Source: Oscillospiraceae bacterium (GTDB lineage: Bacteria; Bacillota_A; Clostridia; Oscillospirales; Oscillospiraceae). From it: DNA of 24,814 bases. Made by a program: the position numbers and the translations under genes. The notes below the pieces were generated by a model. That model did not search any database. It was not told the DNA's origin and saw nothing but the letters and a program-made list of their open reading frames with translations. The DNA is taken from the NCBI GenBank assembly GCA_015068175.1, contig SVLA01000012.1, forward strand, positions 1 to 24,814, in the 5' to 3' direction. Shown piece after piece: positions 10,327 to 22,417 of this stretch. Numbering within the stretch: position 1 is the stretch's first letter; each line of letters starts with the position of its first letter.

Positions 10327-10908
10327 TTGGAACTGAATTTTCAATTTTTCCTGAACAGCATCCTTCTGGGCGTGGGTCTTGCCATGGATGCCTTCTCCGT
10401 GGCCATGGCCAACGGCCTTAACGAACCGAAAATGAAGCAGGGCAAGATCTGCGGCATCGCCGGCCTGTTCGGTCTGTTCCAGGGCCTGATGCCCTTGATC
10501 GGCTGGATCTGCATCCACACGGTCATGCAGTATTTCACCGCCCTGGAGAAGCTGATCCCCTGGATTGCCCTGGGCCTGCTGAGCTACATCGGCGGTAAAA
10601 TGGTCCTGGACGGCCTCCATCCCGATGCGGAGGAGACCAAACCCGGCGTGGGGTTTGCGGCGTTGGTGGTCCAGGGCATCGCCACTTCCATCGATGCCCT
10701 CAGCGTGGGCTTCACCATTGCCGACCACGACCTGCCGGCGGCGGTGCTGGCCGCGGCCATCATTGCGGCGGTGACGGTGGTCATCTGCTACGCCGGCGTC
10801 ATCATCGGCAAGACCGTGGGAAATAAGATCGCAGGCAAAGCCGGTATTTTCGGCGGTGTGCTTCTGATCCTCATCGGCCTGGAGATCTTCATCTCCGGCG
10901 TATTTTGA
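10327..10908 (+). CDS. mntP: Manganese efflux pump MntP-type
   Basis: A 193-residue inner-membrane protein with six predicted membrane segments formed by two related halves. Each half carries the family signature: GLAMDAFSVAMANG (D21) and GIATSIDALSVGF (D123); GGKMVLDGL also matches. MntP exports Mn2+ to prevent manganese toxicity. The only suitable start is TTG (10327), because GAGGT (10314-10318) sits 8 bases before it and no in-frame ATG lies nearby upstream. MntP genes elsewhere are often controlled by a yybP-ykoY manganese riboswitch; the 57-base gap here is too short for one and none is seen, so expression probably comes from the MATE promoter. A perfect terminator follows. Confidence 0.92.
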   Translation: MELNFQFFLNSILLGVGLAMDAFSVAMANGLNEPKMKQGKICGIAGLFGLFQGLMPLIGWICIHTVMQYFTALEKLIPWIALGLLSYIGGKMVLDGLHPDAEETKPGVGFAALVVQGIATSIDALSVGFTIADHDLPAAVLAAAIIAAVTVVICYAGVIIGKTVGNKIAGKAGIFGGVLLILIGLEIFISGVF

Positions 10909-10920
10909 ACATATGGCCCT

Positions 10921-10948
10921 CCCGGTGGACATTGGTCCACCGGGTTTT
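10921..10948 (+). terminator. Terminator after mntP
   Basis: CCCGGTGGAC, loop ATTG, GTCCACCGGG and then TTTT: a 10-bp perfect stem with a short T run. Confidence 0.88.
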
Positions 10949-10982
10949 GCTGTCTGTATCGCAATATTTCCCCGGCGGACGA

Positions 10983-11011
10983 TTGACAGCTACCTATGGA
11001 AGCGGTATAAT
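10983..11011 (+). promoter_or_regulatory. Consensus sigma-A promoter for cohesin/protease operon
   Basis: TTGACA (10983-10988), 17-base spacer, TATAAT (11006-11011): both boxes are perfect consensus. This should be a strong promoter for the two-gene operon. The leader of about 50 bases has no obvious riboswitch. Confidence 0.85.
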
Positions 11012-11069
11012 GGGGAAGTATCATGGCACCCGGCGGACAAGGCCGGCTGCCGCGCGAGGAGGAAATAGC

Positions 11070-11681
11070 ATGGTAAGAAAAATGACAGCCCTGCTGATGG
11101 CAGCGGCGCTGATCATGGCCCTGACTGCGGCGGTCTCCGCTGCGGAAAACGGCCAGGCATGGCTGGTGGTGGAACCCGATGAAGGCACCACCGTGTCCCT
11201 GAAGGTAGATACCGCCGTCACCGACGGTGTCATCACGGTTACATATGATGCCGCGGCGCTGACCTACGGCGGCATTACGGTGGCGGAAGGCCAGGTGGCC
11301 AATTACGCCGTCAATGCCCAGACCCCCGGCACCCTGCGGATCGGCTGGGTAGGCCCCGGCGCGGAAGTGCCCGCGGACGGCGCCGTCCTGATCACCCTGG
11401 AGTTCACCGGCACGGAACAGACCAATTCCGTGACCATGACCGGCACGGTCCATTGTGCCGACGGCGCCGACCTGACCCTGGGTCAGACCCAGGTCCTGGA
11501 AAAGCCGGTGCCCCCCACAACGGCACCCACGACGCCTTCCGAGACCCAGAAACCCACGGAAGGCGACGACAGCCCCTCCGTGGAGACCGGCGACCGTTCC
11601 ATGGTCCCGGCGGCGGTAATCGCGGCCCTGCTGGCACTGACCGGCACCGCGCTGATGGTTAAGAGGGGGTGGCAGAGATGA
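11070..11681 (+). CDS. Cohesin-like domain surface protein with C-terminal membrane anchor
   Basis: A 203-residue exported protein. Residues 1-24 form a signal peptide (MVRK…AAVSA). Residues about 30-137 resemble a cohesin-type beta-sandwich: VSLKVDTAVTDGVITVTYDAAALTYGGITVAEG, then GTLRIGWVGPGAEVPADGAVLITLEFTG. A Pro/Thr-rich linker (about 145-170) precedes V171-E-T-G-D, a hydrophobic segment (179-197) and the basic tail KRGWQR. This tail has the shape of a sortase sorting signal, but the LPxTG proline position is Val, so simple membrane anchoring is equally possible. The ATG at 11070 is chosen because GAGGAGG (11056-11062) is 7 bases before it and the signal peptide starts there; longer frames lack both. 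The stop overlaps the next start as ATGA. The neighbour carries a dockerin-like module, so this protein may be its cell-surface receptor (inference). Confidence 0.75.
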   Translation: MVRKMTALLMAAALIMALTAAVSAAENGQAWLVVEPDEGTTVSLKVDTAVTDGVITVTYDAAALTYGGITVAEGQVANYAVNAQTPGTLRIGWVGPGAEVPADGAVLITLEFTGTEQTNSVTMTGTVHCADGADLTLGQTQVLEKPVPPTTAPTTPSETQKPTEGDDSPSVETGDRSMVPAAVIAALLALTGTALMVKRGWQR

Positions 11682-14600
11682 TGAAGAGATTTTTTGCCGC
11701 CGCGCTGGTTCTGTGTCTGCTGCTGAGCTGGGGCCTGAGCGGCACCGTCAGCGCCGTTTCCACGGACCGGCTGGCTTTTGAAAAACTCACCGGCAGCCGG
11801 AAGGATCTGAGCATCCTCCAGGGCAATTCCGCGGCGGACCTGGCTATTGAGAAGTCCATGGTGGACCGGCAGGGCATGGTGGAAGTGTTCATCGTTATGG
11901 AAGGCAAGTCCGTCCTGGAGCAGGACCCCCTTGCCCAGCCTGACGAAGATACCCTGGCCGCGGCTGAAAAGCTGGAGCAGGCCCAGGCCAAGATCATCGA
12001 CCGCATCCGGGAGAAGGTCCTGGACGGCGCCGAGCTGGAGATCAGTTATGGCTATACCTGGCTGTTCAACGGCGTGGCCGCCCGGGTCCCCTATGCCCGG
12101 CTGGACGACATCCGGAACGTAGCCGGCGTTCAGCAGGTGGTGGTGGCCCCCAAGTATGAAGCCTGCGAGACCGCGCCCGCCCAGGGCGGCGCTTCCGTCT
12201 ATACCGTCAGCGACGGCATCATGATCGGCCGTGAAGATACCTGGGCCGGCGGCTATACCGGCATGGGCATCAAGATCGCCGTTATCGATACGGGCCTGGA
12301 TGTGGACCATCAGAATTTCCAGGCGCTGCCCGAGGAAAAACTGACCAAGGATTCCGCGTCTCTGGAGTCCGTGGCGGCGGTGCTGGGCGAATTGAACGCC
12401 AGCGTCCGCTACCCCGGCTTGAAGGCCGAGGATGTTTACCACAATACCAAGGTGGTTTTCGGCTTCAACTACGGTGACGACAACACCGACGTGACTCACG
12501 ACAACGACGGCCAGGGCACCCACGGCACCCACGTTGCCGGCATTGCCGCCGCCAACCGGGTGGAAGGTTCCGATGTTGTGGGCGTGGCCCCGGACGCGCA
12601 GCTTTACATCATGAAGATCTTCGGCGGCAAGCGGGCCGGTGTGGCCACGGATATCGTGGCCGCGTTGGAAGACGCCCTGCTGCTGGGGGCCGACGTGGTC
12701 AACATGAGCCTGGGCACAAATGCCGGCTTCACGGAGAACGCCGACGAATTTATCAATACCATTTATGAGCGGGTGGCCCTGACCGGTACGGTCCTGTCCG
12801 CTTCCGCCGGCAACAACTACACCGCTGGTATGTACAACAACTGGGGCACCAATTCCAACCTGACCACCAACCCCGATAACGCGGTGGTGGGCGAGCCGTC
12901 CACCTACGGCAGCCCCATGAGCGTGGCCAGCGTGGAGAACCTGATGATCCAGCGCCACTATATCCAGGTCAGCGACGGCTATAAGATGGCCTTCAACGAG
13001 ACCTCCGCCTCCTATGGCCTGCCTTCCGTGCTGGACATGGCGGGCGAATATGAGCTGGCTGCCGTCCCCGGCAATGGCGAAGCGGCGGATTATGAAGGCC
13101 TGGATGTGGCCGGCAAGATTGTCCTGGTCCAGCGCGGCGTCATCAACTTCAGCGACAAAGTCCAGAACGCGGAAAATGCCGGCGCCGTGGGCTGCCTGGT
13201 GTATAACAATGTCAGCGGCGAGTTTGGCATGGACCTGACGGGCTGTGAAGCTGCCATCCCCGCCGCCTCCATCTCCATGGAAGACGGCCAGCGCCTCATC
13301 GGCCAGATGGAAAGCGGCGCTTTGAAGGTCTCCTTCCCCCAGGAAACCACCTCCATGGTCAGTCCCTACGCCTGGCAGATGAGCGACTTCTCCTCCTGGG
13401 GCGTGGCCCCGGACCTGACTCTGGAGCCGGACATCACCGCCCCCGGCGGCAATATCTACTCCACCATTATGGACGGCGAATATGCCGTCATGAGCGGCAC
13501 CTCCATGGCCGCGCCCAATATCGCCGGCATCTCCGCCCTGGTGCTGCAGTATGTCCGGGAGCATTTTGACGATCCCGACCAGTACCGCGCCCTGGTGCAG
13601 AATCTGCTGGTCAGTACCGCATCGCCCCTGCCTTATGATACGGAGGGACTGTTCTTCTCCCCCCGTCAGCAGGGTTCCGGCCTGGCCAACGCCTTCGACA
13701 GCATCCGCAGCCATGCCTACCTGACCGTGGCCGGCGCCGATGTGCCCAAGGTCTCCCTGGGGGACGATGCCCAGCGCACCGGCAAGTACGGCTTCAGCTT
13801 CCAGGTGACCAATTTTGGCACCGAGGCCCTGTTCTACAAGCTCCATACCGTGGCCCAGACCGAAGGCTACTCCGAGGACCCCGCCTATGAAGGCAAGTAT
13901 TTCATGTCCTCCACCCCCTACGGCCTGACGGCCCTCACCGGCGAAAACTCCGATGCCATGGTCCTGACCTATGACCTGGACGGCGACGGCGATACCGACT
14001 CCCGGGATGCCTACCTGACCTGGCAGAAGGCCGGCAGCGGCGAAAAGTCCGCCGACGAATTCCGCTACGACCTCAACGGCGATTCTTCCGTCAATTCCGA
14101 CGACGTGCAGGACTACCTGAATGCCCTGGTGGGCCTGGATTCCGATGCGGATCTGGAAGATACGGTCCTGCAGGTCCCCGCCGGCGAGACCGTGGAAGTC
14201 CATGTGGACGTGGAACTGTCCGCCGAGGACCGGACCTACCTGGATACATACTACACCAACGGCGGTTATGTGGAAGGCTTCACCTTCCTGACCTCCTGCG
14301 GCGCCATGGATGTGGACCTGAGCCTGCCCTACCTGGCCTACTACGGCAGTTGGGACGAGCCCCCCATGCTGGATGACGGCAACTACTGGGATCTGCTGAA
14401 CGCCGAGGAAGGCGAAGTGGTGGGCAACCAGTATTACCACACGCTGTTTACCAACTTCTACGGCTACGAGTCCTACGTCTACCCCGGCTTCAACGTCTAT
14501 TCCGAGGACGTGGTCTTTGATCCCGCCCACATTTCCGTATCCCCCAACGGCGACGGCTATTTCGACACTGTGGACGATATCTACACCTCTCTGCTGAGAA

Positions 14601-17464
14601 ATGCCGCCACCACCACTTACCGCTATACCAATATGGCCACCGGCGAAGTGTACTATGAGCAGACCGTGGAGCTGGTTTCCAAGAGCGTCTATAACGCCAA
14701 TTATGACCAGATCATCCCCAATGTCTACACCTGGTACAGCGAAGAGATCCTCATGTGGGATTGGCTGAAGGCAGACGGAACCGCCCTGGACAACAATACC
14801 AACCTGCTGCTGGAAGTGGAAGTGGTGGGCGCCTACGAAGGCGCTACCCCCGAGATCTGGTCCGTGCCCATCTTCGTGGACCTGACCGGCCCCGAACTTC
14901 TGGAGCTGACCCGGCAGACCAACAGCCTCACCGGCGAAGTGACCCTGCACCTGTCTTTCCGGGATAACCACTATGTCTCCGCCGTTGCGCTGATGAACAG
15001 CAGCGGTTCCGAGAGCTACCACATCTCCGTGCCGGAAGATCCGGAGCCTGCGGCTGACGGCTACCGCTATTACGAGATGGACATTGACATCACCGGCCTG
15101 ACCGGCAAGCTGTCCGTGATCCTGGACGATTACGCCATGAACCAGGTCAGCTATGCCATGAACCTGGGCGGCGAGGGTACGCCCTACGGCCAGTTGGTGG
15201 GTTATCAGTACAACTTCATCGACGGTATCAACGGCTGGGTCTCCTTCGATCCCGAGGCCGACCTGGTGACCCCGGAAGCACCGGCCACCGAACCCACCGA
15301 AGAGGGTGATGAGACCGTTCCCACTTCCAAGCCCAGAGATCCTTATTACAAGGTCAATGAAGTGCAGATCACCATGGACGAGATGAATTTCGTCTGCGCC
15401 GAATATGTGGGCGGCTTCGTCTACGCCCAGACCGAGACCGGCGACTTCTATGGCTTCCGCTATACGGATATGCTGAAGGACACCTTCGCTCTGGAGATGT
15501 ACTACATCACCACATTGGACTATGTCTACCAGGATCTGGCCTATGACTACAGCACCGGCCAGCTCTGCGGCCTGAATACCTGGGAGGATGAAGGCGGCTA
15601 TCCCTATTCCGCCGTGTATACCATCAACATCCACGGTGAATATGTGGATCAGCAGACCGACAAGAAGTATGCCCCCTATGAGGAATACTGGGCCTACCAG
15701 CGCGGCGGCCTCTACGGTCTGTGCATGGCCATCGATGACCAGGGTACCATCTACATCCTGGGTACCAACTACAGCAATAACAACGCCACGGAGCTGTGGA
15801 CTTCCTATGAGGACCGGAACTACGGCACCTTGTTCAAGTCCCTGATGACCCTGGATGTGTCCATGGACTACCTGCAATCCATGACCTGGGATCATAACGA
15901 TGAGACCATCTATTGGGCCCGTTTCGACGGCCATGGCGCCTATTCCCACGAAAGCGCCCTGTATCGCATCGATGTGGATACCCTGACCTATGAACAGATC
16001 GGCGAACTGGACGGCGAAGTCTGCGCCCTGTTCTCCCCCCTGACGGAAGAAACGGCCGCGAAACCCGCCCACGGCAATCTGCCGGTGGTGGATACCTCCG
16101 TGGTGGCCCTGCCCAGACTGCGGACCACGGTGGCCACCATGAACGTGGGCAGCACCATCAACCTGGTCTATGACCTGGATCCCTGGTATTCCGACCATAA
16201 GGAAGTGGTCTGGAGCACCAGCGATGCCAATGTGGCAACGGTGGACCAGGAGGGCAACGTCCTGGCTGTGGGCACCGGCGAAGCCCGGATCAAGGTGGCC
16301 AACAAGGCCGATCCCACGAAGTATACCGTCTGCACCGTCCAGGTCAGCGCCCTGACGCTGAAGCTGGAAGGCATCATCTCCGCCCAGGGCGCGGGCCTGG
16401 GCAACGCCGGCGGTACCAGCACCTACGTCTTTGACATGGTGGAAGGCATTTCCACCTTCGGCACCACCCATGTGATCACCGCCACGGAGGATAAGAACTA
16501 CGGCCTGAGCCTGGCCACCTCCGTCCTGGGCCGGGGTTCCATCTGGGCCTGCGAGTGGGGCAACACCGGCATGGTCTACCAGATCGACGCCGCCACCGGC
16601 GAGGTCCTGGATGTGCTGCAGCCCATCTGCGGCGATATGCTCTTCGGCATGACGTATAACGAGGAACTGGATACCTTTGCGGGGATCATGGATATGTACC
16701 TGTATGTGGATCTGGAGCTGACCCATGAGGAGCAGGAGAAGATCATGGCATCCCGTGAGGGCAACGAATTTACCTACCACAAGCTGAACCTGCTGCCTTA
16801 TCTGCTGGATGCCCATGGCGGCTTCATCACCAACGAGACCGGCCAGGGTGCCTCCAGCGAGATCGTCATGTGCGGCATTACCACCATCCCCGAGCCTTAC
16901 ACCTATGTGGATACCGGCCTGGACTTCCTGGGCAATTCCACGACCTATCCCGCGGAGTACACCTCCACCCAGACCTTTGTGATCCTGGATAACGTGGGCC
17001 GGCTGTGGTATATTGACGAGATCTGCAATATGACCAAGTCCGGCAACTATTTCAGAGGCGCGGATGGAAAACGGATCTCCGCCAAGCGCTACGGCGTTCT
17101 GTCCCTGGAGAATGAGGACGGCACCTATAACGTCTTCAACATCCGGGCCATCGAGGAAACGGGCCTGACGGATATGTTCCGCGGCGGCAACATGCCCCGG
17201 ATCACCTACCACTTCTCCGACATCGAGTATGCCGGCAAGACGGCGGACGGCGCCAATATGTTCGCCCTGAGTCTGTATGACTACTGGAACAACGGCACCA
17301 CCAATGAGCTGTATCTGTGCGTGGCGGAGCGTACCAGCTACGATCCCACCACCGGCCTGACCAGCGTGCTGAGCGATGGCCGGCTGTATGACCTGGGCGA
17401 CACGGGCAAGTACAATATCATTGCATCCATCCACTCCGCCGAAGTCCTGGGCGGCATCGACTGA
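11678..17464 (+). CDS. Giant secreted subtilisin-like (S8) protease with PA, dockerin-like and Big2 domains
   Basis: A 1,928-residue exported serine protease, lactocepin-like. After a signal peptide (1-25) and an I9-type propeptide region (about 65-160) comes the S8 domain with D204 (AVIDTG), H282 (GTHGTHVAG), oxyanion N379 (SAGNN) and S609 (SGTSMAAP). A PA domain is inserted at about 433-548. Residues 766-815 carry two Ca-binding dockerin-like loops (D766-x-D-G-D-G-D and D798-x-N-G-D), 32 residues apart. An Fn3-like region (SPNGDGYFD, FVDLTGPE) follows, then a Thr/Glu/Pro linker, a propeller-like segment, a Big2 domain (about 1483-1558) and a beta-rich C-terminus. There is no C-terminal sorting signal or membrane segment, so attachment to the cell must come from elsewhere; the cohesin-like protein encoded just upstream (ATGA overlap) is the obvious candidate. 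The ATG at 11678 is preferred over GTG 11669 because GAGGGGG is 8 bases before it. Its role is probably degradation of extracellular protein. Confidence 0.9.
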   Translation: MMKRFFAAALVLCLLLSWGLSGTVSAVSTDRLAFEKLTGSRKDLSILQGNSAADLAIEKSMVDRQGMVEVFIVMEGKSVLEQDPLAQPDEDTLAAAEKLEQAQAKIIDRIREKVLDGAELEISYGYTWLFNGVAARVPYARLDDIRNVAGVQQVVVAPKYEACETAPAQGGASVYTVSDGIMIGREDTWAGGYTGMGIKIAVIDTGLDVDHQNFQALPEEKLTKDSASLESVAAVLGELNASVRYPGLKAEDVYHNTKVVFGFNYGDDNTDVTHDNDGQGTHGTHVAGIAAANRVEGSDVVGVAPDAQLYIMKIFGGKRAGVATDIVAALEDALLLGADVVNMSLGTNAGFTENADEFINTIYERVALTGTVLSASAGNNYTAGMYNNWGTNSNLTTNPDNAVVGEPSTYGSPMSVASVENLMIQRHYIQVSDGYKMAFNETSASYGLPSVLDMAGEYELAAVPGNGEAADYEGLDVAGKIVLVQRGVINFSDKVQNAENAGAVGCLVYNNVSGEFGMDLTGCEAAIPAASISMEDGQRLIGQMESGALKVSFPQETTSMVSPYAWQMSDFSSWGVAPDLTLEPDITAPGGNIYSTIMDGEYAVMSGTSMAAPNIAGISALVLQYVREHFDDPDQYRALVQNLLVSTASPLPYDTEGLFFSPRQQGSGLANAFDSIRSHAYLTVAGADVPKVSLGDDAQRTGKYGFSFQVTNFGTEALFYKLHTVAQTEGYSEDPAYEGKYFMSSTPYGLTALTGENSDAMVLTYDLDGDGDTDSRDAYLTWQKAGSGEKSADEFRYDLNGDSSVNSDDVQDYLNALVGLDSDADLEDTVLQVPAGETVEVHVDVELSAEDRTYLDTYYTNGGYVEGFTFLTSCGAMDVDLSLPYLAYYGSWDEPPMLDDGNYWDLLNAEEGEVVGNQYYHTLFTNFYGYESYVYPGFNVYSEDVVFDPAHISVSPNGDGYFDTVDDIYTSLLRNAATTTYRYTNMATGEVYYEQTVELVSKSVYNANYDQIIPNVYTWYSEEILMWDWLKADGTALDNNTNLLLEVEVVGAYEGATPEIWSVPIFVDLTGPELLELTRQTNSLTGEVTLHLSFRDNHYVSAVALMNSSGSESYHISVPEDPEPAADGYRYYEMDIDITGLTGKLSVILDDYAMNQVSYAMNLGGEGTPYGQLVGYQYNFIDGINGWVSFDPEADLVTPEAPATEPTEEGDETVPTSKPRDPYYKVNEVQITMDEMNFVCAEYVGGFVYAQTETGDFYGFRYTDMLKDTFALEMYYITTLDYVYQDLAYDYSTGQLCGLNTWEDEGGYPYSAVYTINIHGEYVDQQTDKKYAPYEEYWAYQRGGLYGLCMAIDDQGTIYILGTNYSNNNATELWTSYEDRNYGTLFKSLMTLDVSMDYLQSMTWDHNDETIYWARFDGHGAYSHESALYRIDVDTLTYEQIGELDGEVCALFSPLTEETAAKPAHGNLPVVDTSVVALPRLRTTVATMNVGSTINLVYDLDPWYSDHKEVVWSTSDANVATVDQEGNVLAVGTGEARIKVANKADPTKYTVCTVQVSALTLKLEGIISAQGAGLGNAGGTSTYVFDMVEGISTFGTTHVITATEDKNYGLSLATSVLGRGSIWACEWGNTGMVYQIDAATGEVLDVLQPICGDMLFGMTYNEELDTFAGIMDMYLYVDLELTHEEQEKIMASREGNEFTYHKLNLLPYLLDAHGGFITNETGQGASSEIVMCGITTIPEPYTYVDTGLDFLGNSTTYPAEYTSTQTFVILDNVGRLWYIDEICNMTKSGNYFRGADGKRISAKRYGVLSLENEDGTYNVFNIRAIEETGLTDMFRGGNMPRITYHFSDIEYAGKTADGANMFALSLYDYWNNGTTNELYLCVAERTSYDPTTGLTSVLSDGRLYDLGDTGKYNIIASIHSAEVLGGID

Positions 17465-17481
17465 GGACAAACAACCACCAG

Positions 17482-17513
17482 GGGCGCGGCTTCGGCCGCG
17501 CCCTTCCGCTTTT
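17482..17513 (+). terminator. Terminator after protease gene
   Basis: GGGCGCGGC (17482-17490), tetraloop TTCG, GCCGCGCCC (17495-17503), then TTCCGCTTTT. Confidence 0.8.
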
Positions 17514-17584
17514 GGGCCGGAGAGGGAAAAATGCAGATTTTTCGCCGCCGTGGGGACAAAAGGGGAAGTTTTTCGGGGAAGCTG

Positions 17585-17614
17585 TTGACGAACCATGGAG
17601 AAACGTGCTATAAT
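17585..17614 (+). promoter_or_regulatory. Promoter of Clp-FtsH fusion gene
   Basis: TTGACG (17585-17590), 18-base spacer and TATAAT (17609-17614) with a TGC extended -10 element. No Crp/Fnr-type palindrome is seen here. Confidence 0.7.
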
Positions 17615-17655
17615 GCATAATGGTATATTATATTACACACGGAAAGGTGAGATAT

Positions 17656-20600
17656 ATGTCTGTACAAAATGATCAGTTGCTGAACAAGATCGTTGAGCAT
17701 GCCCGGCAGGTGGGCAGCAAGAAGAATTATCCCCTGACGGCGGAGCGCTATCTGGTGGCCCTGGTGGACGTGCTGGATGGCAGCTATCCTCTGGAGGGAG
17801 CCGATCTGGAAGCGGTACAGAAGATCTTCCGGGACATCGGCGTGGATGTGCACCGTCTGAAGCGGCTGCTGCTGGGCCATATCGAAGGCGGCCGCAGCAT
17901 GGTGTATCTGGATGACCTGTACATGAAAAAGAAGATGAGCGAAGCACAGCAGAAGGCCGCCGCCGCGGCCCAGCCGTATCTGACGGCGGAAGTGCTGCTG
18001 CGCTGCATCCTGGAGGATCCCACCGACGCCATCCGGGACTCCGTGAAGGAAGCGGTGGCATCTGCCTCCAAGCCTGCCGACAGCGGCAACGGCGCCCCGG
18101 CGGATAATGCCGACCCCTTCCGGACCATTATGGCCAATTTCCGGGCGGAGCAGAAGCCTCAGGACGGCGCCCCCATCAACATCGGCGGCGCACCCAAGCC
18201 CGAAGGCGGCCAGCCTGCCGATGACAAGCCCAAGGCCCCCAAGAAGGCCGAGCCTGCCCAGAAGAACATCGTGGAGCAGCTCACCGAGGAGACCAAGGAA
18301 CTGCAGAAGAAGCTGGCGGAAGTGATCGTGGGCCAGGATAACGCCATCAACGTGGTGGCCTCCGGCTATTTCCAGCACAAGCTGCTGGCCCTGACCGACC
18401 GGAAGCGGGAGCGCCCCAGCGCCACCTTCCTTTTCGCCGGCCCTCCGGGCGTTGGCAAGACCTTCCTGGCGGAGACTTTTGCCAAGAACCTGGGCCTGCC
18501 CTTCAGCCGCTTCGACATGAGTGAATATTCCGACAACGAAGCCAACGTGGAATTCGCCGGCTCTCCCAAGATCTATAAGGATTCCAAACCCGGCAACGTC
18601 ACCAACTTCGTTGCCACCAATCCCCGCTGCGTGCTGCTGTTCGATGAGATCGAAAAGGCCCACATCAACGTCATCCATCTGTTCCTGCAGATCCTGGATG
18701 CGGGCCGCCTGCGGGACAGCCATACCAATGACGAAGTGTCCTTCAAGGATGCCATCATGATCTTCACCACCAACGCCGGCAAGAATCTCTACGAAGATTC
18801 CGACACGGGCGATTTCTCCGCCCTGAGCCGGAAGGTGATCCTGAAGGCCCTGCAGAAGGACGTGAACCCCACCACCGGCGTGCCCTTCTTCCCCGCCGCC
18901 ATCTGCTCCCGTTTTGCCACCGGCAACGTGGTCATGTTCAACCACATGGCCGCCCACAGCCTGTGCCAGATCGCCAAGCGGGAGATCCGCCGTCAGGCCG
19001 ACAATTTCGGCACCGAGATCGGCATCGACATCGACATCGAGGAGCAGGTCTATTCCGCATTGCTGTTCGCCGAGGGCGGCGCAGCCGATGCCCGTACGGT
19101 CCGCAGCCGTGCCGAGACCTTCTTCAACAACGAGCTGTATGAGCTGTTCCGTCTGGTGAGCGCCGCTTCCAACACCGGCAGCCTGAGCCAGATCGACAAG
19201 ATCCACATCAGCGTGGACCTGCCCGAAGGCAATCCCGAGCTGATGGATATGTTCGTTGGCCGCACGGAGCCCGATGTGCTGGTGTTCTCTTCCGCGGAAG
19301 TGGGCGCGCTGTGCGCCTCCAAGACCGACCGCTGCAAGTTCCATACCGCCTCCACCGTGGATGCCGCCAAGGAGATCCTGGGCAAGAAAGACATCAAGGT
19401 GGTCCTGCTGGATCCCAACTTCGGCGGCAAGGGCGAGGCCAAGGGGTACCTGAACATCGAAGATATGGACTCCGTGTCCCGTGACTTCTTCCACTACCTG
19501 CGGGAGAAGGAGGGCAGCCTGCCCACCTTCCTGCTGCAGACCGAAGAGCGGACCTACGGCATGGAAGAAAAGGTCTCCTACCTGCGGCAGGGCATGCGCG
19601 GTGTCATCACCGTCACCGCCGGGGACGACGATTTCGCCGACGAGATCAACCTGATCTGCAGCAACCTCCATCAGCAGCTCAGCATGAATAAGCTGGCCAA
19701 GGCCAATAAGCTGGTGAATTTCGAGACCGCCCAGACCCTGAATGAGGCCGGCAATGTGGCCTACATCCGTCTGTTCGACTTTGAGATGGCCGTGGCCCTG
19801 GATCCCGAGGATTCCGGCAGCATCCTCAGCAGCGTCTCCAAGCCCAATGTCCGCTTTGACCAGGTCATCGGTGCCGACGACGCCAAGAAGGAACTGCAGT
19901 ATTTCGTGGAATATTTGAAGAACCCCAAGAAGTTCCTGGAAAGCGGCGCCAGCGCACCCAAGGGCGTGCTGCTGTACGGCCCTCCGGGTACCGGCAAGAC
20001 CCTGCTGGCCAAGGCCATGGCCAGCGAGTCCGATGTGACCTTCATCACCGCCGAGGGCAACCAGTTCCTGAAGAAGTACGTGGGCGAAGGCCCCGAAAAG
20101 GTCCATGAGCTGTTCCGCACCGCCCGGAAATATGCCCCCTCCATCGTGTTCATCGATGAGATCGATGCCATCGCCAAGGAGCGCAACGGCGGTAATGACG
20201 GCAGCTCCCAGGTGTCTTCCGCCACCCTGACCGCCCTGCTGACGGAGATGGACGGCTTCAAGAAGGATGCCACCAAGCCTGTGTTCGTGCTGGCGGCCAC
20301 CAATTTCGACGTGGAACCCGGCTCTCCCAAGAGCCTGGATGCGGCTCTGATGCGCCGCTTTGACCGTCGGGTGCTGATCGACCTGCCCAATAAGAACGAC
20401 CGCGTCCGCTACCTGAAGATGAAGCTGGCGGAGCATGTGGCCTTTGACGTCAGCGATGCCAAGATCGACAGCATTGCCGTCCGTGCCACCGGCATGAGCC
20501 TGGCCTCCCTGGAGTCCGTTGTGGAGCTGGCGCTGCGCAGCGTCCTGCGCCAGGGCAACGGTAAGGTGGACGACGAAGTATTTGACGAAGCCTTCGAGCT

Positions 20601-21177
20601 GTTCAACAGCGGCGAGAAGAAGCAGTGGGATCCCAGAGAGCTGGAGCGCACCGCCCGCCATGAGGCCGGCCATGCCTTCCTGTACTGGAAGAGCGGCAAC
20701 TGCCCCAGCTATGTGACGGTGGTGGCCCGCGGCAACCACGGCGGCTATATGCAGCACGGCGATACGGAGCAGAAGGGCAGCTATTCCCGTCAGGATCTGT
20801 TGGATCTGATCCGCACCTCCCTGGCCGGCCGGGCTGCGGAGATCGTATATTACGGACCCGAGGGCGGAATGACCACCGGCGCTTCCGGCGACCTGGCTTC
20901 CGCTACCCGCCGGGCACGGAACATGATCTGCCGCTACGGCATGAGCGAGCAGTTCGGCCTGGCGGTCATCGATGAGGATATCGCCCGGGGCGGCGAGCTG
21001 GCGGACGAAGTCCGGGCCGCTGTCAATGAGATCCTGGCCCGGGAACTGGAGAACACCATTGCCCTCATCGAGGCCAACCGTGCCGCGGTGGATGCCCTGG
21101 TGGAGGCTCTGCTGACCAAGAACCATCTGTCCGGCGACGAGATCGATGCGATCTTCAGCGCCCACGCGACGAAGTAA
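17656..21177 (+). CDS. Soluble double AAA+ zinc protease: ClpN, Clp-type AAA+, receiver-like domain, FtsH-type AAA+ and M41
   Basis: A 1,173-residue protein with an unusual order. Residues about 1-130 hold two Clp_N-like repeats (YPLTAERYLVALVD and PYLTAEVLLRCILED). After a Pro/Ala/Gly linker, about 215-510 is a ClpA/B D2-like AAA+ module with Walker A GPPGVGKT (262-269), Walker B D330-E331 and an SRF arginine finger. Residues about 540-660 alternate strands and helices like a response-regulator receiver, with D586 in VVLLDPNF, but SS replaces the usual acidic pair. Then come an FtsH-like AAA+ (Walker A 775-782, Walker B D834-E835, pore loop KKYVG) and an M41 peptidase with H1002-E-A-G-H1006 and D1079 in TTGASGDLASAT. 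FtsH normally has two N-terminal membrane helices; none is seen, so it should be cytosolic. ATG 17656 follows AAAGGTGA; an upstream in-frame start lacks this. It is a single gene with its own promoter and terminator. Probable role: ATP-driven proteolysis with a second unfolding or assembly motor. Confidence 0.9.
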   Translation: MSVQNDQLLNKIVEHARQVGSKKNYPLTAERYLVALVDVLDGSYPLEGADLEAVQKIFRDIGVDVHRLKRLLLGHIEGGRSMVYLDDLYMKKKMSEAQQKAAAAAQPYLTAEVLLRCILEDPTDAIRDSVKEAVASASKPADSGNGAPADNADPFRTIMANFRAEQKPQDGAPINIGGAPKPEGGQPADDKPKAPKKAEPAQKNIVEQLTEETKELQKKLAEVIVGQDNAINVVASGYFQHKLLALTDRKRERPSATFLFAGPPGVGKTFLAETFAKNLGLPFSRFDMSEYSDNEANVEFAGSPKIYKDSKPGNVTNFVATNPRCVLLFDEIEKAHINVIHLFLQILDAGRLRDSHTNDEVSFKDAIMIFTTNAGKNLYEDSDTGDFSALSRKVILKALQKDVNPTTGVPFFPAAICSRFATGNVVMFNHMAAHSLCQIAKREIRRQADNFGTEIGIDIDIEEQVYSALLFAEGGAADARTVRSRAETFFNNELYELFRLVSAASNTGSLSQIDKIHISVDLPEGNPELMDMFVGRTEPDVLVFSSAEVGALCASKTDRCKFHTASTVDAAKEILGKKDIKVVLLDPNFGGKGEAKGYLNIEDMDSVSRDFFHYLREKEGSLPTFLLQTEERTYGMEEKVSYLRQGMRGVITVTAGDDDFADEINLICSNLHQQLSMNKLAKANKLVNFETAQTLNEAGNVAYIRLFDFEMAVALDPEDSGSILSSVSKPNVRFDQVIGADDAKKELQYFVEYLKNPKKFLESGASAPKGVLLYGPPGTGKTLLAKAMASESDVTFITAEGNQFLKKYVGEGPEKVHELFRTARKYAPSIVFIDEIDAIAKERNGGNDGSSQVSSATLTALLTEMDGFKKDATKPVFVLAATNFDVEPGSPKSLDAALMRRFDRRVLIDLPNKNDRVRYLKMKLAEHVAFDVSDAKIDSIAVRATGMSLASLESVVELALRSVLRQGNGKVDDEVFDEAFELFNSGEKKQWDPRELERTARHEAGHAFLYWKSGNCPSYVTVVARGNHGGYMQHGDTEQKGSYSRQDLLDLIRTSLAGRAAEIVYYGPEGGMTTGASGDLASATRRARNMICRYGMSEQFGLAVIDEDIARGGELADEVRAAVNEILARELENTIALIEANRAAVDALVEALLTKNHLSGDEIDAIFSAHATK

Positions 21178-21195
21178 ATCCCACCCCCAAAACCC

Positions 21196-21220
21196 AAGGC
21201 CCCGCTTTCGCGGGGCCTTT
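21196..21220 (+). terminator. Terminator after Clp-FtsH fusion gene
   Basis: AAGGCCCCGC (21196-21205), loop TTTC, GCGGGGCCTT (21210-21219) and one more T. A 10-bp perfect stem. Confidence 0.82.
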
Positions 21221-21291
21221 CCGGCTTCAAAAGGGGCGGTAAATGCGGTGAAATTCCCGCCGCCTCTGCGAAAAAGCCTCCCCCGGAGGGT

Positions 21292-21310
21292 TATGGTATT
21301 TGGAGCCATA
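21292..21310. promoter_or_regulatory. Inverted repeat upstream of rtcB
   Basis: TATGG and CCATA separated by 9 bases lie 21 bases before the rtcB start. CATACT (21307-21312) could be a -10 box but no -35 is recognisable. Possible operator; weak. Confidence 0.25.
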
Positions 21311-21331: not shown

Positions 21332-22417
21332 ATGGCATATGATTTGATGATTTACACGGACAATGTGGAGCCGGCGGCGGTGAATCAGATCTACAATCTG
21401 ATGACCCAACCCCCGTTCCGGGGTTCCAAGGTCCGGATCATGCCGGATGTCCATGTGGGCAGCGGCTGCGTGGTGGGGTTCACGGCCACCATGGGGGACA
21501 AGGTGATCCCCAACGTCATCGGCGTGGACATCGGCTGCGGAATGCTGACGGTGGAATTGGGCAAGGCGGATGTGTATCCGGCGGCCCTGGACGGTTTCAT
21601 CCGGGCCCAGATCCCGGCGGGCAGCGCCCTGCACAAGGACTACGGCGATGTGGATTTCGTGAAAAAGCTGCGCTGTTTCGGGGAGCTGCGGGATACGGAC
21701 CGGGTGTTCCGTTCCATGGGCACCCTGGGGGGCGGCAACCACTTTATAGAGCTGGATCGGGACGAAGAGGGAAATACCTATCTGGTGATCCATTCCGGCT
21801 CCCGAAATTTGGGCACCCAGGTGGCCAAATACTACCAGAAAAAGGCCGTGGATCTGTGCAAAAACGACCCGGCCCGCAGCAAGATCCCGGCGGACTACTG
21901 CTATCTGCAGGGGGCAGAGGCGGAAGATTATCTCCACGATATGCGTATCTGCCAGGAATTTGCGGTCCGTAACCGCCTGACCATGGCAGAGCGGATCTTG
22001 AAGCACCTGGGGATCTCCAAGGCCACCCGCTTCGAGACCATGCATAATTTCATCGATGAGGAGAATATCATCCGCAAGGGCGCCATTCCCGCCCACCGGG
22101 GCCAGAAGGTGCTGATCCCCATGAATATGCGGGACGGCTGTCTCATTGCCGAAGGCAGAGGCAACCCGGATTGGAATTGTTCCGCCCCCCACGGCGCCGG
22201 CCGGCTGGTGAGCCGGGCGGAGGCCAAGGAACTGTTCACGGTGGAGGAATATCAGGCCGCCATGGCCGGGATCTATACCACCTCCGCCAACCGCTCCACC
22301 ATTGATGAATCCCCCATGGCCTACAAACCCATGGCGCAGATCCTGGGCCTCATCGGCCCCACGGTCACCGTCCTGAAGGTGATCAAACCCATCTACAACT
22401 TTAAGGCAGGAAACTGA
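21332..22417 (+). CDS. rtcB: RtcB-family RNA ligase
   Basis: A 361-residue RtcB-type 3'-phosphate RNA ligase, somewhat shorter than E. coli RtcB (408). Conserved metal and nucleotide positions are present: D39 and H41 in MPDVHVGSG, D66 and C69 in GVDIGCGM, N136 and H137 in TLGGGNHFIEL, H154 in VIHSGSRNLG, H238 in MHNF, and the guanylated histidine H287 in APHGAGR. RtcB joins RNA 2',3'-cyclic phosphate or 3'-phosphate ends to 5'-hydroxyl ends using GTP and Mn2+, for RNA repair or tRNA splicing. GAAGGAAA precedes the ATG. No archease gene and no RtcR regulator are nearby. The next gene starts one base after its stop, so they are translationally coupled. mntP in the same window is functionally unconnected apart from the shared metal. 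Confidence 0.94.
   Translation: MAYDLMIYTDNVEPAAVNQIYNLMTQPPFRGSKVRIMPDVHVGSGCVVGFTATMGDKVIPNVIGVDIGCGMLTVELGKADVYPAALDGFIRAQIPAGSALHKDYGDVDFVKKLRCFGELRDTDRVFRSMGTLGGGNHFIELDRDEEGNTYLVIHSGSRNLGTQVAKYYQKKAVDLCKNDPARSKIPADYCYLQGAEAEDYLHDMRICQEFAVRNRLTMAERILKHLGISKATRFETMHNFIDEENIIRKGAIPAHRGQKVLIPMNMRDGCLIAEGRGNPDWNCSAPHGAGRLVSRAEAKELFTVEEYQAAMAGIYTTSANRSTIDESPMAYKPMAQILGLIGPTVTVLKVIKPIYNFKAGN

What the first reader, a model, noticed from the sequence alone, without database searches (positions are those of the whole stretch)
17656..21177. Soluble Clp-type plus FtsH-type double AAA+ protease with an embedded receiver-like domain
Seen: one uninterrupted frame carries two Clp_N-like repeats, a ClpA/B-like AAA+ module (Walker A 262-269, D330-E331), a middle region about 540-660, an FtsH-like AAA+ module (775-782, D834-E835) and an M41 HEAGH peptidase with its third ligand. 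Known: Clp ATPases act with separate ClpP rings and FtsH is a membrane-bound hexamer with its own protease; the two are normally separate proteins. Inference: this is a self-contained cytosolic unfoldase-protease with two motors. The middle region looks like a degenerate receiver (strand VLVF with SS in place of the acidic pair, VVLLD586, then PTFLLQT and GMRGVITV), so it may be a signal-input or partner-docking domain. A shared ring carrying two different AAA+ tiers would be new architecture.
Basis: partly seen in the sequence, partly recalled or inferred. Interest (0 to 1): 0.78.

Follow-up and report, generated by a model that had tools for sequence, protein, structure and literature searches.

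The report
Two-motor Clp–FtsH fusion protease
A single soluble gut-bacterial protein joins a Clp-type unfolding motor, an inserted receiver-like domain and a complete FtsH-type motor with its own zinc protease; it belongs to an apparently undescribed family whose neighbours in other genomes include a channel-like protein with ryanodine-receptor domains and a defence-type nuclease.

Summary
One intact frame (17656-21177) encodes 1,173 aa: helical, weakly Clp_N-like N-domain; AAA+ module matching Clp D2; receiver-fold domain (536-682); FtsH-type AAA+; M41 peptidase. No transmembrane segment was seen. Key Walker, arginine-finger, HExxH and third-zinc-ligand residues are identical in all 67 aligned sequences. 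The receiver call is supported (19 of 22 PDB profile hits are receivers, best E only 0.014), but receiver chemistry is mostly lost: D586 persists in 64 of 67. In the model the receiver sits in the closing beta-hairpin of the first motor's lid. The architecture is a real family in gut Clostridia (115 of 120 listed hits align over 97% or more of the query), unnamed in the papers I could search; ordinary FtsH coexists in 18 of 20 genomes. In 15 of 20 named-genome loci the gene lies beside a CASTOR/TrkA-like channel protein with RyR domains, a CARF-PDDEXK nuclease, YbjN-like proteins or a lone RyR protein; 0 of 18 ordinary-FtsH loci of the same genomes do. I read it as a self-contained two-motor protease, possibly the proteolytic arm of a nucleotide-signalled conflict system. 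In this window those partners are absent; an RtcB-like gene follows. No activity is shown.

The parts
17585..17614 (+). sigma-70-like promoter TTGACG-18-TATAAT with TG before the -10
   Evidence: 11 of 12 consensus letters; consensus match only
17641..17651 (+). ribosome-binding-site-like ggaaaggtgag
   Evidence: read from sequence
17656..21177 (+). Clp-FtsH two-motor protease, 1173 aa
17656..18069 (+). helical N-domain, Clp_N-like (residues 1-138)
   Evidence: seven predicted helices; weak Clp_N and ClpC2 matches
18070..18252 (+). disordered, poorly conserved linker (139-199)
   Evidence: pLDDT under 50 at 139-198; 12% mean pairwise identity
18259..19215 (+). AAA+ module 1, Clp D2-like, large domain and most of lid (202-520)
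19261..19701 (+). pseudo-receiver domain, in the model inserted in the lid of module 1 (536-682)
19411..19413 (+). D586, the receiver phospho-acceptor position
   Evidence: D in 64 of 67
19450..19464 (+). family-specific LNxED motif (599-603) in the loop after strand 3
   Evidence: L, N, E and D identical in 67 of 67
19708..19794 (+). returning beta-hairpin (685-713), first strand reaching the last strand of Clp D2 in 27 of 30 Clp-type rows
19831..20625 (+). AAA+ module 2, FtsH type (726-990)
20626..21165 (+). M41 zinc peptidase (991-1170)
   Evidence: PF01434 109.7 bits; HExxH at 20659-20673 and third ligand D1079 at 20890-20892, 67 of 67
21196..21219 (+). GC hairpin after the stop codon, terminator-like but with a short T run
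   Evidence: -24.5 kcal/mol, z -3.08; not among the sites
21332..22417 (+). RtcB-like RNA ligase family gene, possible partner
   Evidence: PF01139 209 bits; 76% identical gene follows the protease in L001

Best explanation
The gene makes a self-contained, cytosolic, ATP-dependent zinc protease. Inferred working: six chains stack a Clp D2-type ring on an FtsH-type ring that closes on the M41 chamber, so the Clp-type tier takes the place of FtsH's membrane anchor. The Clp_N-like domain and the pseudo-receiver on the lid of the first motor receive substrates, adaptors or a regulatory partner; tier 1 starts unfolding, tier 2 pulls the chain in, and M41 cuts it. It is an extra protease beside the housekeeping FtsH. 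In many relatives it is co-encoded with what looks like a signal-gated module (RCK channel-like protein with RyR domains, CARF nuclease, YbjN-like proteins), so I think it most likely degrades regulators or targets in a stress or anti-parasite response. Shown: domains, intact motifs, family, neighbours. Inferred: hexamer, threading, regulation, biological role. About 0.8 for the two-motor protease, about 0.4 for the signalling role.
For: Catalytic and motor residues identical in 67 of 67 aligned sequences, including R419, R901, R904 (arginine-finger positions, assigned from recall), R480 (sensor 2); pore position 307 is aromatic in 67 of 67 and 808 in 63 of 67. Mean pairwise identity is highest in the motors (66.9% and 72.2%) and lowest in the N-domain (25.7%) and linker (12.0%), as for a fixed machine with a variable input end. 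In distant kin the N-domain is absent (L029) or replaced (L060). The ClpP-binding IGL/IGF loop (recalled) is not recognisable in the alignment with Clp D2. Ordinary FtsH also present in 18 of 20 genomes. Neighbours: 15 of 20 fusion loci against 0 of 18 ordinary-FtsH loci of the same genomes with up to about 8 kb flanks, and 15 of 20 against 0 of 31 with short flanks. The channel-like gene F1 follows the protease at -8 to +33 nt in 10 loci.
Against: No activity, oligomer or substrate is known. The full-length model is a monomer with pTM 0.62, so the mutual placing of domains is unsure. The window itself lacks F1, CARF, YbjN and RyR genes and the gene looks monocistronic. Five of 20 loci lack these neighbours. 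F1 also occurs where the protease was not found: 3 of 6 genomes in a sample of 297, and in two of the three genomes with both they lie on different contigs. The YbjN label is not clustered on the protease tree (8 changes against a shuffled mean of 8.0).
Confidence: 0.7

Rival explanations
1. An ordinary extra proteostasis protease with no link to defence: the neighbours in other genomes are shared stress genes, and in this window it works alone or with the RtcB-like ligase.
For: Promoter-like site and hairpin of its own in the window; five of 20 loci have none of F1, F2, F3 or F5; the window groups with L015 and L017, which lack them; RtcB-like gene downstream in the window and L001.
Against: 15 of 20 against 0 of 18 in same-genome controls; near-zero or overlapping spacing to F1 in 10 loci; F1 clustered on the tree (9 of 500 shuffles as low). 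None of this shows defence as such.
Confidence: 0.35
2. The first AAA+ ring is not a threading motor but an assembly and regulatory platform: it holds six FtsH modules together in place of membrane anchors and senses the partner bound to the pseudo-receiver.
For: It occupies the position of FtsH's membrane part; the receiver lies in its lid in the model; the Clp GYVG pore loop (visible) is changed to a KVYK-like one.
Against: All tallied ATPase residues and an aromatic pore residue are kept in 67 of 67.
Confidence: 0.25
3. A true phospho-receiver: D586 is phosphorylated and switches the protease on.
For: D in 64 of 67; receiver fold and profile matches; E602 and D603, invariant, could stand in for the missing acidic pair.
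Against: Acidic pair and conserved lysine are missing, T629 is T in 32 of 67; the distant L060 has no aspartate there (LISLK).
Confidence: 0.08

Closest known systems
FtsH / m-AAA / i-AAA proteases (M41)
   Different: No transmembrane anchor seen; a whole Clp-type motor and receiver in front; 365 bits against the NCBIfam cut-off of 600; two residues shorter before the RFDR motif than the FtsH-like L022
ClpA / ClpB / ClpC (Hsp100)
   Same: Module 1 matches D2 best; Clp_N-like N-domain (weak)
   Different: No D1 found; carries its own metalloprotease instead of docking to ClpP; receiver in the lid
CRISPR-associated Lon protease CalpL
   Same: A protease linked to cyclic-nucleotide signalling (starts of abstracts seen in the listing)
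   Different: Lon and SAVED domains, type III CRISPR; here the link is genome context in relatives only
FtsH ternary conflict systems (PMC7159879; passages seen)
   Same: Double AAA+ protein with FtsH-type motor in predicted conflict loci
   Different: There both modules are FtsH-type, the first is inactive, partners are MoxR and vWA; the term M41 does not occur in that text
IetA/IetS anti-phage pair
   Same: Module 2 scores with IetA models (1.4e-44), and an S8 protease gene lies upstream in the window
   Different: The score is probably general AAA similarity; the window's S8 protein has PA and Big_2 domains and a weak dockerin match, as in surface proteins, and a GC hairpin (z only -1.86) stands between the two genes

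Membership tests
FtsH (NCBIfam TIGR01241) | FtsH-type AAA+ joined to M41 with HExxH and third zinc ligand | tested here: met
FtsH (NCBIfam TIGR01241) | score over the family cut-off | tested here: not met
   365.2 against 600 bits
FtsH (NCBIfam TIGR01241) | N-terminal membrane anchor | tested here: not met
   highest 19-residue hydropathy mean 1.31, at residue 1135; a hydropathy scan, no dedicated predictor
ClpA/B/C (Hsp100 class I) | two Clp-type AAA+ modules, D1 and D2 | tested here: not met
   only a D2-like module found; ClpA 171 against 993 bits
ClpA/B/C (Hsp100 class I) | Clp_N domain | tested here: inconclusive
   2 of 21 members match Clp_N weakly; ClpC2 E 0.0092
ClpA/B/C (Hsp100 class I) | ClpP-docking loop | tested here: inconclusive
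   not recognisable in one alignment; motif recalled
Response-regulator receiver (PF00072) | (beta-alpha)5 fold and profile similarity | tested here: met
   predicted order of elements, profile matches; weak E-values, domain not folded alone
Response-regulator receiver (PF00072) | acidic pair, D, T/S and K active site | tested here: not met
   only D586 conserved, 64 of 67
Anti-phage defence system | protects against phage | not testable with these tools
   needs an experiment

The most novel reading that the evidence does not exclude
The family is the proteolytic arm of an undescribed immune system of gut Clostridia. An ADP-ribose-type or cyclic nucleotide signal opens a CASTOR/TrkA-like channel through its RyR domains and activates a CARF nuclease, while the two-motor protease, docked through its lid-inserted pseudo-receiver to YbjN-like or other adaptors, destroys phage or regulator proteins or resets the response.
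Probability: 0.25. Interest if true: 0.88.

Novelty: new variant of a known kind. Interest (0 to 1): 0.68.

Why it matters
AAA+ proteases are known either as separate motor and peptidase (Clp) or as one motor fused to its peptidase (FtsH, Lon). A natural soluble chain with two motors of different lineages over one M41 chamber would let one ask directly what a second motor adds, and would give a membrane-free FtsH-type chamber for study. A receiver inserted in a motor's lid suggests a simple way for partners to control an unfoldase. The neighbour pattern also points to a channel-like protein with ryanodine-receptor-like domains linked to a CARF nuclease, soon after RyR domains were reported to bind and cleave cyclic ADP-ribose immune signals (PMC13232231).

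Tried and rejected
Rejected: assembly artefact or chance frame (115 of the 120 listed hits, one of them the window's own, align over 97% or more of the query; the lowest is 80%). Rejected: membership of IetAS through the upstream S8 gene (surface-type protein; weak match to the S8 partner's model, E 0.0038). Not supported: phage or plasmid cargo (144 phage and 2,236 plasmid records match module 1 plus receiver somewhere, 0 of them over 80% of it). Tried without result: own genome (not held); literature naming such a fusion (ten searches: none seen in the listings; open-licence papers only). Cas10 in the 20 genomes: clear in G012 only (88.9 bits); three others are over the cut-off but weak, and the model also rings in E. 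coli, so whether a type III CRISPR signal feeds the CARF protein stays open. MAFFT alone did not place the lid hairpin; the insertion claim rests, where 27 of the 30 Clp, Hsp104 or Skd3 rows shown end at residues 694-703 and three (7ttr_A, 8yd1_C, 9jvp_D) end at 521-534. Genome counts are lower bounds, since only two or three candidates per genome were scored there. Rfam found nothing in the window.

Full report

Conservation. The alignment holds 67 sequences chosen for diversity: the window's own, 55 database proteins, and 11 of the 22 loci. Both Walker A lysines, both Walker B acid pairs, the arginine-finger and sensor-2 positions, HExxH and D1079 are identical in all 67. Pore position 307 is always aromatic and 808 is aromatic in 63 of 67. 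Both motors and the peptidase should therefore be active; this is inference.

The middle domain. Residues 536-682 form beta-alpha units in receiver order. A profile of 21 members finds 22 PDB sequences at E up to 10: 19 are receivers or response regulators, two are de novo designs and one is named VAL88; the best E is only 0.014. Single members match Response_reg (5 of 21) and OKR_DC_1_N (7 of 21) at E up to 10; the window's own segment matches nothing. Position 586 is D in 64 of 67, but the acidic pair and lysine are missing, while an LNxED motif in the next loop has its L, N, E and D invariant. ClpB D2 aligns across 206-698, so its last strand falls on residues after the receiver; 27 of the 30 Clp-type rows shown end at 694-703, three end at 521-534. 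I read the receiver as an insertion in the closing hairpin of the lid. This rests on a predicted model.

The N-terminus. Seven helices; weak Clp_N support. It is the least conserved folded part (25.7% mean pairwise identity). L029 lacks it and L060 has a different, longer N-terminus, while the rest of the chain is retained. I infer a swappable input module.

Family and spread. One search scored 7,988 candidates and found 7,590 matches, many of which must be other AAA+ proteins; of the 120 listed (one the window's own), 115 align over 97% or more of the query and the rest over 80-84%. Where a source gives a name it is 'AAA family ATPase' of Oscillospiraceae, Ruminococcaceae or Clostridia MAGs. 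In an even sample of the class of G018, 3 of 391 genomes (the centre included) match beyond the FtsH part. Family of G018: 6 of 297, one apparently cut by a contig end (G446) and one divergent with another N-terminus (G596, L060). Genus of G001: 3 of 61, two of them of a distant type (37% identity over 209-1168). Family of G005: 1 of 5, the centre. Searches scored only two candidates per genome, so these are lower bounds. All 20 genomes behind L001-L021 (L016 left out) hold an M41 gene, and 18 hold an ordinary FtsH besides the fusion; G015 and G016 show the fusion alone. Eight shorter relatives (943-1011 aa; P0242-P0249) appear with L029 as query.

Neighbours. By tblastn in 20 named-genome loci, with up to 8 kb of flank where the contig allows: YbjN-like F2 in 12, channel-like F1 in 10, CARF-PDDEXK F3 in 8, lone RyR F5 in 7, any of them in 15. 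In 18 ordinary-FtsH loci of the same genomes, cut to similar flanks, none was found (Fisher P 1e-6, kinship ignored). An earlier control with short flanks gave 15 of 20 against 0 of 31, 27 of the 31 from other genomes. Families are assigned on examples: YbjN 24.3 bits, cut-off 22, for one protein of the L005 pair and no match for the other; Card1_endonuc 27.9, cut-off 26.4, in L010 but 19.9 in L005; RyR 125.7, cut-off 27.4; CARF4-PDDEXK 5.4e-36. F1 starts -8 to +33 nt after the protease in 10 loci, one of them the fragment L016; in L010 it lies upstream. In 297 genomes of one family the fusion is in 6 and F1 in 6, both in 3 (hypergeometric P 9e-5, kinship ignored); they are adjacent in G018 only. 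On the tree F1 is clustered (5 changes, shuffled mean 8.1) and YbjN is not (8, 8.0); four tips there (L028, L057-L059) have short flanks, so their labels are unsure. Ten contig lengths recur in both 120-row lists.

The window itself. None of F1-F6 was found in the 24.8 kb. An RtcB-like gene follows, 76% identical to one in the same place in L001; it was not found in the other 19 fusion loci. The protease groups with L015 and L017 on the tree (support 96/97) and is nearest to L001 by path.

Verdict. A new variant of a known kind: an AAA+ protease with two motors of different descent and, in the model, a lid-inserted pseudo-receiver. The machine reading is strong on anatomy and untested in the laboratory. 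The signalling role is a lead from relatives, not from this window.

Noticed in passing
L005 11550-13820, L019 11663-14263; protein P0200: Protein family (named 'hypothetical protein' where a source names it) with hydrophobic N-terminal segments, a CASTOR/TrkA/GsuK-like RCK gating module and RyR-like domains: a possible signal-gated bacterial channel.
   Followed up: partly
L005 6416-7738, L010 11254-12534: CARF-PDDEXK (Card1-like) nuclease genes near the protease, in genomes mostly without a clear Cas10 match.
   Followed up: partly
L011 772-3231 and 13176-16367: Two TIR-domain proteins, one with WD40-like repeats, on either side of the protease.
   Followed up: no
L004 9107-11740: A second, distant M41 double-motor relative near the first (running off the contig), with a small gene upstream related to the DUF1292-like gene (just under cut-off) upstream of the relative in L029.
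   Followed up: no
L060 1-3969: Relative of the protease with a long unrelated N-terminal part instead of the Clp_N-like domain, and no aspartate at the receiver site.
   Followed up: no
window 21332-22417: Short RtcB-like ligase gene (361 aa), conserved next to the protease in L001.
   Followed up: partly
window 10905-17464: Cohesin-like gene (match under cut-off) followed by a 1931-aa subtilase with PA, Big_2 and a dockerin match under cut-off: a possible surface protease pair.
   Followed up: no
window 11483-17596 and 17608-21309, minus strand: Very long open frames opposite real genes; they look like GC-driven shadows.
   Followed up: no
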